From assembly GCA_024398965.1 (NCBI GenBank), contig JAKSIF010000001.1, forward strand, positions 1 through 64,000: 64,000 nucleotides of DNA, in the 5' to 3' direction. Source of the DNA: Fibrobacter sp. GTDB taxonomy: Bacteria > Fibrobacterota > Fibrobacteria > Fibrobacterales > Fibrobacteraceae. Shown one piece after another: positions 15,037 to 18,261 of this stretch; the first letter of the stretch is position 1; every line of letters begins with the position of its first letter. Made by a program: the position numbers and the translations under genes. The notes beneath the pieces are model-generated. The model searched no databases, was not told the DNA's origin, and saw nothing but the letters and a program-made list of their open reading frames with translations.

Positions 15037-15109
15037 GCCTCCATCGTCTAGTGGCCCAGGACTCGGGATTTTCATTCCCGCAACAGCGGTTCGAAACCGC
15101 TTGGAGGTA
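15037..15109 (+). tRNA. tRNA-Glu (anticodon TTC), copy 1
   Basis: A 73-nt cloverleaf: anticodon arm CGGGA-TTTTCAT-TCCCG, T-arm GCGGT-TCGAA-ACCGC, acceptor GCCTCCA/TGGAGGT with a G1-U72 wobble, and A73. Confidence 0.95.
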
Positions 15110-15185: not shown

Positions 15186-15258
15186 GCCTCCATCGTCTAG
15201 TGGCCCAGGACTCGGGATTTTCATTCCCGCAACAGCGGTTCGAAACCGCTTGGAGGTA
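15186..15258 (+). tRNA. tRNA-Glu (anticodon TTC), copy 2
   Basis: Identical to copy 1, 76 nt downstream; the spacer has no promoter-like site, so the two are probably cotranscribed. Confidence 0.95.
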
Positions 15259-17883: not shown

Positions 17884-17919
17884 AAAAACGGGCGCCCTCT
17901 CGGGCGTCCATTTTTTTTC
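17884..17919 (+). terminator. Terminator after the C25-like peptidase gene
   Basis: GGGCGCCC-tctc-GGGCGTCC followed by ATTTTTTTT; the stem has one G-U wobble. Confidence 0.85.
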
Positions 17920-17921
17920 AA

Positions 17922-18005
17922 GGAGGGTGAGGGATTCGAACCCTCGGTCCTGTGACAGACTCCGGATTTCGAGACCGGCCCAATCGACCACTCTGGCAAC
18001 CCTCC
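17922..18005 (-). tRNA. tRNA-Ser (anticodon CGA)
   Basis: An 84-nt tRNA with a long variable arm. Acceptor GGAGGGT/ACCCTCC, anticodon loop CTCGAAA with U33 and CGA at 34-36, intact T-loop GGG-TTCGAAT-CCC. A U-U mismatch closes the anticodon loop (31-39). Confidence 0.93.
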
Positions 18006-18014
18006 GAGTTTGAC

Positions 18015-18045
18015 CCAATTTAGTATAATATTTTCTGATTGTCTA
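18015..18045 (-). promoter_or_regulatory. Promoter of tRNA-Ser(CGA)
   Basis: TAGACA-N17-TAAATTGG on the minus strand, 9 nt before the tRNA 5' end. Confidence 0.55.
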
Positions 18046-18077
18046 TTTATCCAATCTCTTTTCGCAGCTTTGCTGCG

Positions 18078-18261
18078 AGGAGGGTGAGGGATTGACAAAG
18101 CTTTCACTTCGTTTCAAGCTTTGCCCTTCGGGTCCGGCCGTTGCCCGGATCTCAAAACTTGCATGTTCGCCTTCGGCTCTCGCAAGTTTTGTCGAACCCT
18201 CGGTCCTGTGGCAGACGACCGATTTTGTGACCGGCCCAATCGACCACTCTGGCAACCCGAC
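18078..18261 (-). pseudogene. tRNA-Ser-like locus interrupted in the T-loop
   Basis: The minus strand repeats most of the intact tRNA-Ser next door: GTTGCCAGAGTGGTCGATTG, a variable arm, and GACCGAGGGTTCG up to base 57. After a 99-bp insert it resumes exactly at base 58 with AATCCCTCACCCTCCT. No base is lost or duplicated relative to the intact copy. The anticodon arm is broken: position 33 is A, not U, and the stem has mismatches. The 5' acceptor strand (GTCGGGT) no longer matches the 3' strand at two positions. The promoter has a good TTGACC but a weak GACATTG box. A pseudogene is most likely; a non-decoding tRNA-like RNA cannot be excluded. Confidence 0.7.
18094..18192 (-). repeat. 99-bp hairpin element inserted in the tRNA-Ser T-loop
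   Basis: Almost entirely self-complementary. On the plus strand: CAAAGCTT/AAGCTTTG (18096-18123), CCC-ttc-GGG (18124-18132), CCGG/CCGG (18134-18148) and CAAAACTTGC/GCAAGTTTTG (18153-18191), the last enclosing GCC-ttc-GGC. Read on the minus strand several loops are C-GAA-G, a very stable triloop. The ends are inverted repeats (ACAAAnCTT), as in a miniature palindromic element. Confidence 0.75.

What the first reader, a model, noticed from the sequence alone, without database searches (positions are those of the whole stretch)
18078..18261. tRNA-Ser-like gene split exactly in the T-loop by a 99-bp self-complementary element
Next to an intact tRNA-Ser(CGA) lies a second serine-tRNA-like sequence. 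A 99-bp insert sits precisely between bases 57 and 58 of the T-loop, without loss or duplication of tRNA bases. The insert is nearly all hairpins, with inverted-repeat ends (ACAAAnCTT) and C-GAA-G triloops on the tRNA strand. The anticodon arm is also altered (A33, mismatched stem) and the acceptor stem has two mismatches, so it is probably not a decoding tRNA. It may be a mobile palindromic element that targets tRNA, a pseudogene relic, or a structured RNA built on a tRNA scaffold.
Basis: partly seen in the sequence, partly recalled or inferred. Interest (0 to 1): 0.75.

Follow-up and report, generated by a model that had tools for sequence, protein, structure and literature searches.

The report
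tRNA split by RtT-type hairpin repeat
Next to a serine tRNA gene lies a decayed copy of that gene whose T-loop holds a cluster of hairpins; it belongs to a little-studied family of repeats (E. coli 'RtT') that sits behind tRNA genes in several bacterial groups, copies parts of its host tRNA, and looks built to fold as DNA rather than RNA.

Summary
In detail: 18078-18261 (- strand) is a tRNA-Ser body split in the T-loop by a 99-bp hairpin cluster. It is not a one-off, an artefact or a dispersed mobile palindrome. A covariance model of the insert finds structural relatives in all 29 well-assembled Fibrobacter genomes sampled and in nine genera of the family. In representative loci they sit just behind tRNA-Ser, -Pro and -Gly genes, with flanks copied from that host tRNA. 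The model also hits all four E. coli RtT repeats (tyrT/tyrV; E 4e-9 to 4e-7), and an exact-pattern scan finds many more at tRNAs in Gammaproteobacteria and other phyla. So this is an outlying RtT-type (RF00391) unit fused to a whole tRNA body. The best explanation is recombination at the T-arm between a tRNA and its downstream unit; the same rearrangement occurred at tRNA-Pro in another species. The window copy has no recognisable promoter, a wrecked anticodon loop and acceptor mismatches: a relic. New points: stems covary strongly but nearly without G.U (6 G.T, 5 A.C in 2,098 pairs; 48 and 1 in 1,466 for terminators in the same loci), loops are GNA/GNNA DNA mini-hairpins, and terminators usually precede the unit. 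Selection or upkeep therefore probably acts on DNA. What the unit does remains inferred.

The parts
18078..18261 (-). tRNA-Ser-like gene split in the T-loop; chimera of a tRNA body and an RtT-type insert
   Evidence: sequence; R1 model hit 18087-18198, 98.4 bits
18192..18261 (-). tRNA-Ser 5' body (acceptor 5' strand, D arm, altered anticodon arm, variable arm, T-arm 5' half ending GAGGGTTCGA)
   Evidence: alignment to intact tRNA-Ser and to the G024 copies
18093..18191 (-). 99-bp insert (three hairpins plus CCC-GAA-GGG mini-hairpin)
18153..18191 (-). HP1: CAAAACTTGC / GCAAGTTTTG, inner GCC-GAA-GGC flanked by GA/GA
   Evidence: fold; covarying helix in 17 related inserts
18133..18149 (-). HP2: TCCGG / CCGGA
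18124..18132 (-). CCC-GAA-GGG GNA-triloop mini-hairpin, the most conserved block of the family
   Evidence: invariant CCC/GGG in the alignment of 17 inserts
18096..18123 (-). HP3: CAAAGCTT / AAGCTTTG around GAAACGAAGTGA
18078..18092 (-). tRNA 3' part: T-arm 3' half and acceptor 3' strand (ATCCCTCACCCTCCT), identical to that of the intact neighbour
17921..18005 (-). intact tRNA-Ser(CGA), the host tRNA
18017..18053 (-). promoter-like hexamers of the intact tRNA, in the spacer behind the split copy; none found in front of the split copy
17893..17906 (-). terminator-like hairpin of the intact tRNA

Best explanation
The insert is an outlying RtT-type unit: a cluster of GNA/GNNA-loop hairpins held between the two halves of a tRNA T-arm. 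Normally such units lie 60-90 nt downstream of an intact tRNA as [inverted T-arm]-GNA-[T-arm 5' half]-HP1-HP2-CCCGAAGGG-HP3-[T-arm 3' half + acceptor 3' end], with all tRNA pieces matching the host tRNA (shown). In the window, a tRNA and a unit have been joined at their shared T-arm 5' half (GAGGGTTCGA), giving tRNA body + insert + tRNA 3' end upstream of a second, intact tRNA (inferred from anatomy; tRNA-unit-tRNA-unit arrays and an independent case at tRNA-Pro exist). The product lost its tRNA function and probably its promoter and is decaying. The unit's fold is maintained at the DNA level, as ssDNA or a cruciform on the tRNA strand (supported by pair statistics and loop type). The most likely mechanism is a structured DNA repeat that is copied, exchanged and homogenised with its tRNA by recombination or replication template-switching at the self-complementary T-loop TTCGAA (inferred). 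Whether it serves the cell or only persists is open.
For: Model R1, built from 17 Fibrobacter inserts, finds units in 57 of 61 Fibrobacter genomes (29 of 29 good ones) and in 9 genera of the family, none elsewhere in the phylum sample. It hits all 4 E. coli RtT repeats (E 4e-9 to 4e-7) and 54 sites in a 75-locus set drawn from other bacteria. RF00391 hits Fibrobacter units at up to 37.6 bits. 60 of 61 inspected hits have a tRNA in the locus, mostly 64-85 nt upstream, and the flanks match that tRNA; the exception is an E 0.42 hit. Outside Fibrobacter the 3' arm matches the host tRNA over 15.2 nt on average vs 8.8 on permutation (max 9.9). Covariation: 114 double changes vs 41.5 shuffled. G.T 6, A.C 5 in 2,098 pairs vs 48 and 1 in 1,466 for terminators in the same loci (p 7e-13 for G.T frequency). 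GNA triloops 77 of 127 in Fibrobacter, 74 of 146 elsewhere. GNA/GNNA loops make very stable DNA mini-hairpins (PMC4686876). Terminator-like hairpin in front of 45 of 56 Fibrobacter units. Split copies: two in G024 (Ser), one complete in G041 at tRNA-Pro with promoter region and anticodon intact. tRNA-unit-tRNA-unit array in the own genome, contig 37.
Against: The window copy alone scores only 15.6 bits with RF00391, and no Fibrobacter unit reaches Rfam's cut-off of 45. E. coli RtT is a described transcript, so an RNA role cannot be excluded. The absence of G.U could reflect template-switch repair of palindromes rather than function. The G.U effect is weaker outside Fibrobacter (7/1,059 vs 31/1,192 with two flanking pairs, 6 vs 20 with three). 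No intermediate of the proposed deletion was observed. Units are not independent, since genomes are related.
Confidence: 0.7

Rival explanations
1. A functional small RNA of the RtT type: the split tRNA and its relatives are transcribed with or beside the tRNA, trimmed by tRNA-processing enzymes, and act as a structured RNA (sponge, decoy or stringent-response modulator).
For: E. coli rtT was found as an RNA released from the tyrT transcript and linked to the stringent response; RtT members in Pasteurellaceae were detected as RNAs (PMC2965389; PMC4986893). Stems covary strongly. Some units outside Fibrobacter keep the CCA end.
Against: Almost no G.U pairs while terminators and tRNA stems in the same loci have many. 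Terminators precede most Fibrobacter units. No promoter-like site before the window copy. Loops such as GCCA/GTCA in E. coli fit DNA GNNA, not RNA GNRA.
Confidence: 0.2
2. A transposable palindromic element (MITE, REP or IS200/605 type) that inserts by a transposase 3' of TTCGA in tRNA T-loops.
For: Exact insertion with no target duplication and hairpin ends; same junction in all units.
Against: No terminal inverted repeats; no sequence copies elsewhere in the genome; Y1 transposase in only 5 of 25 genomes searched while units are near-universal; stems differ freely between units; flanks include an inverted T-arm and follow the host tRNA.
Confidence: 0.1
3. Attachment-site remnants or decoys of tyrosine-recombinase elements that integrate at tRNA T-loops.
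For: The T-loop is a classic integrase crossover region (general knowledge); units duplicate the tRNA 3' end, as attR sites do.
Against: The crossover itself is interrupted by about 100 nt, no integrase was identified or looked for systematically, and simple att duplications would lack the three hairpins.
Confidence: 0.1
4. A one-off pseudogene or assembly artefact.
For: The window copy alone looks decayed.
Against: Shared with G024 at about 91% identity, in two tandem copies there, and a parallel case in G041.
Confidence: 0.02

Closest known systems
RtT RNA, Rfam RF00391 (rttR, E. coli tyrT/tyrV repeats; Bosl & Kersten 1991)
   Same: Repeats next to a tRNA; T-arm 5' half GGTTCGA, hairpin cluster with CCCGAAGGG, then AATCC + tRNA 3' end; GATGAGAA left motif; hairpins with GNA/GNNA loops; tandem copies; E. 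coli also has tRNA-unit-tRNA-units. Reciprocal covariance-model hits.
   Different: Fibrobacter inserts are about 20-25 nt longer with longer HP1 and HP3, score below Rfam's cut-off, sit at Ser, Pro and Gly tRNAs, mostly behind a terminator, and the window copy retains the whole tRNA body 5' of the insert.
REP/BIME palindromic elements of E. coli
   Same: Intergenic palindromes; a cluster of attenuator candidates similar to rtT was assigned to BIMEs (PMC2965389)
   Different: REPs are dispersed and RAYT-linked; these units are confined to tRNA 3' regions and carry tRNA sequence.
Integron attC sites
   Same: Recombination substrates defined by hairpin structure of one DNA strand (analogy only, from general knowledge)
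   Different: No cassette genes and no integrase known for these units; multi-hairpin junction instead of one hairpin; not tested as recombination sites.

Membership tests
RtT (RF00391) | score at or above Rfam's gathering cut-off (45 bits) | tested here: not met
   window copy 15.6 bits, E 4.3; best Fibrobacter unit 37.6 bits
RtT (RF00391) | statistically significant full-length match to the family model | tested here: inconclusive
   met for relatives of the unit in 14 Fibrobacter genomes (E 1.6e-5 to 0.006 per genome, model 1-130), not for the window copy
RtT (RF00391) | reciprocal detection of E. coli RtT by a model of the new units | tested here: met
   4 of 4 E. coli repeats, E 4e-9 to 4e-7
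RtT (RF00391) | repeat next to a tRNA and carrying its 3' end from the T-loop on | tested here: met
RtT (RF00391) | released as a stable RNA | not testable with these tools
   no expression data; terminators in front argue against it in Fibrobacter
tRNA-Ser (functional) | cloverleaf with usable anticodon and acceptor stem | tested here: not met
   not called by ARAGORN or Rfam; acceptor mismatches, anticodon loop changed
MITE / REP / IS200-605-like element | defined ends with inverted repeats | tested here: not met
   end similarity at chance
MITE / REP / IS200-605-like element | dispersed copies in the genome | tested here: not met
MITE / REP / IS200-605-like element | matching Y1 transposase present | tested here: inconclusive
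   two in own genome but absent from most unit-bearing relatives

The most novel reading that the evidence does not exclude
'RtT RNA' is in truth a widespread structured-DNA repeat, specific to tRNA T-arms, that works or propagates as single-stranded or cruciform DNA and exchanges sequence with its host tRNA by T-loop recombination. The split tRNA in this window would be a recombination product that records the process.
Probability: 0.35. Interest if true: 0.85.

Novelty: new variant of a known kind. Interest (0 to 1): 0.6.

Why it matters
RtT has been filed as an enterobacterial sRNA curiosity. These results place RtT-type units across one whole family of Fibrobacterota and, by an exact pattern, at tRNAs in Gammaproteobacteria, Zetaproteobacteria and probably other phyla. 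They show that the units' flanks track the host tRNA, and give a simple statistic (no G.U, GNA/GNNA loops) that points to DNA, not RNA, as the folded molecule. That makes a testable question of why some tRNA genes carry tails of hairpins, and of how sequence moves between them and the tRNA.

Tried and rejected
Terminal inverted repeats of the insert: at chance. Sequence copies elsewhere in the genome: none. Y1/RAYT transposase as the agent: present in 5 of 25 genomes only. Rfam at gathering cut-off on the window: only ordinary tRNAs; weak Rfam hits to sX4, plastid 3'UTR and microRNA families over tRNA-Ser or its terminator were judged chance or tRNA-derived. Literature searches for a description in Fibrobacter or for tRNA T-loop insertions found none; the library holds open-licence papers only, and the 1991 RtT paper is not held. 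Viral contigs hold 21 stretches fitting the loose pattern; not followed up.

Full report
OBSERVATION. On the minus strand, 18261-18078 reads as a tRNA-Ser body interrupted in the T-loop. The 5' part ends GAGGGTTCGA (18192) and the 3' part begins ATCCCTC (18092); together they give the T-arm of the intact tRNA-Ser(CGA) at 17921-18005. The insert is 99 nt, with a one-base ambiguity at the joint. It holds HP1 (18153-18191), HP2 (18133-18149), CCC-GAA-GGG (18124-18132) and HP3 (18096-18123), and folds much better than shuffles as ssDNA. The tRNA body is damaged: two acceptor mismatches and an anticodon loop CACAAAA in place of CTCGAAA. Promoter-like hexamers are found before the intact tRNA but not before the split copy.

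NOT A ONE-OFF. A DNA search of relatives found a 90% identical copy in G024 and weaker matches beside tRNA-Ser in many Fibrobacter genomes. Reading those loci showed a regular unit, usually 64-85 nt downstream of an intact tRNA: an inverted T-arm piece, a GNA-type loop, the T-arm 5' half, HP1, HP2, CCCGNAGGG, HP3, then the T-arm 3' half and acceptor 3' end. Units behind tRNA-Pro carry tRNA-Pro arms; units behind tRNA-Ser carry tRNA-Ser arms.

STRUCTURE. An alignment of 17 inserts with a hand-drawn structure shows 114 cells with double compensatory change against 41.5 in shuffles, and 25 of 31 pairs with such changes; sliding the partners destroys this. A covariance model R1 finds units in 57 of 61 Fibrobacter genomes, and in 29 of the 29 that are at least 90% complete with little contamination. 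In a phylum-wide sample it finds them in 9 genera, all in the same family. The own genome has five hits at E<=0.01: the window copy, one behind tRNA-Pro(TGG), one behind tRNA-Gly(CCC), two behind tRNA-Gly(GCC). Of 61 representative hits examined, 60 have a tRNA in the locus; the exception is a hit with E 0.42. Locus L036 was left out of this count because it starts at a contig end. One of the 60 (L097) overlaps the tRNA itself.

RELATION TO RtT. A permissive Rfam scan gave RtT RNA (RF00391) over the full model length for several units, at up to 37.6 bits (cut-off 45). The whole-genome scan gave 15 such matches in 14 of 61 genomes. The window copy itself is not detected significantly. In the other direction, R1 detects all four E. 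coli RtT repeats at tyrT/tyrV with E 4e-9 to 4e-7. The E. coli unit has the same order of parts: GATGAGAAGCTTCGACCAAGGTTCGA, hairpins, CCCGAAGGG, hairpin, AATCCTTCCCCCACCACCA. Literature on RtT is thin: a transcript from the tyrT operon with a suggested role in the stringent response and a similarity to BIMEs (PMC2965389), and RNAs in Pasteurellaceae next to tRNA-Asn and tRNA-Lys (PMC4986893). I therefore call the Fibrobacter units RtT-type, an outlying variant, and do not file the window copy as a formal RF00391 member.

SPREAD. Many titles are Gammaproteobacteria (Marinobacter, Alteromonas, Thioalkalivibrio, Halomonas relatives) or Zetaproteobacteria; single cases come from MAGs labelled Chlamydiae, Verrucomicrobia, Chlorobiota, Kiritimatiellae, Auribacterota and others (contamination possible), and some are plain chance matches. 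Of 124 non-Fibrobacter matches, 76 have a same-strand tRNA within 300 nt upstream, mostly at 50-90 nt. Their 3' arm agrees with the host tRNA over 15.2 nt on average; permuting hosts gives 8.8 (maximum 9.9 in 1,000). R1 gives 54 matches at E<=0.01 in 75 of these loci. RF00391 reaches its cut-off in 3 of 17 loci tried, so the Rfam model covers only part of the group.

DNA OR RNA. If a fold is selected in RNA, G.U pairs are tolerated and A.C mismatches are not; at the DNA level the two are alike. In 91 distinct Fibrobacter units, stems hold 2,098 Watson-Crick pairs and, among mismatches flanked by three pairs on each side, 6 G.T and 5 A.C. Hairpins within 60 nt behind tRNAs of the same loci (mostly terminators) hold 1,466 pairs with 48 G.T and 1 A.C, and tRNA acceptor stems 150 with 11 and 0. 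The difference in G.T frequency has p 7e-13, and in G.T:A.C ratio p 0.0005. Outside Fibrobacter the effect has the same direction but is weaker: with two flanking pairs 7 G.T in 1,059 against 31 in 1,192, p 0.0004; with three flanking pairs 6 against 20, p 0.017. The sequences are related, so the p-values are indicative only. Of the 3-nt loops, 77 of 127 in Fibrobacter and 74 of 146 elsewhere (pattern-imposed loop left out) are GNA on the tRNA strand; 4-nt loops lean to GNNA; E. coli units have GAA, GCA, GAAA, GCCA and GTCA. GNA and GNNA loops with two or more G-C pairs make exceptionally stable DNA mini-hairpins (PMC4686876). A terminator-like hairpin by a strict rule precedes 45 of 56 Fibrobacter units and 27 of 65 others. 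Together these favour structure kept at the DNA level. They do not show a function, because template switching can perfect palindromes without selection.

HOW THE WINDOW COPY AROSE. tRNA-unit-tRNA-unit arrays exist in E. coli, in the own genome (tRNA-Gly, contig 37) and in G062 (L101). A deletion between the T-arm 5' half of a tRNA and that of its downstream unit would leave tRNA body + insert + tRNA 3' end in front of the next tRNA, exactly the window layout. G024 has two such copies in tandem, the outer one truncated. G041 has the same layout at tRNA-Pro(TGG): one complete split copy with the upstream region and anticodon loop of the intact gene, and a truncated outer one. The event has therefore happened at least twice, at different tRNAs. 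The step itself is inferred.

VERDICT. Observation confirmed; interpretation corrected. It is a decayed tRNA-Ser/RtT-unit chimera, one visible trace of a tRNA-bound family of hairpin repeats whose fold appears to be a matter of DNA. The unit's role is not known; my preferred mechanism (recombination and template-switching at the T-arm, with or without a cellular use) is an inference.

Noticed in passing
15037-15109 and 15186-15258: Two tRNA-Glu(TTC) genes in tandem with identical Rfam scores; tRNA-Glu pairs also lie near tRNA-Ser in several relatives.
   Followed up: no
L101 (G062) and L103 (G000 contig 37): Repeated tRNA-Gly(GCC) genes, each followed by divergent RtT-type units.
   Followed up: partly
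L024, L025, L026, L039 (tRNA-Ser plus terminator): Weak Rfam matches to sX4 (RF02223) span tRNA-Ser and its terminator; the sX4 model may contain a tRNA-Ser.
   Followed up: no
L027, downstream of the unit: Behind the unit of G007 lies a run of short degenerate repeats (GAGAGAGGGTCAGTCTCTCT and the like), apparently decaying acceptor-stem palindromes.
   Followed up: no
Viral contigs L232-L252: 21 IMG/VR contigs contain the loose unit pattern; some could be units carried by phages or misassigned host DNA.
   Followed up: no
G000 contigs 9 and 32: Two Y1 (REP-type) transposase genes in the own genome, absent from most relatives searched.
   Followed up: partly
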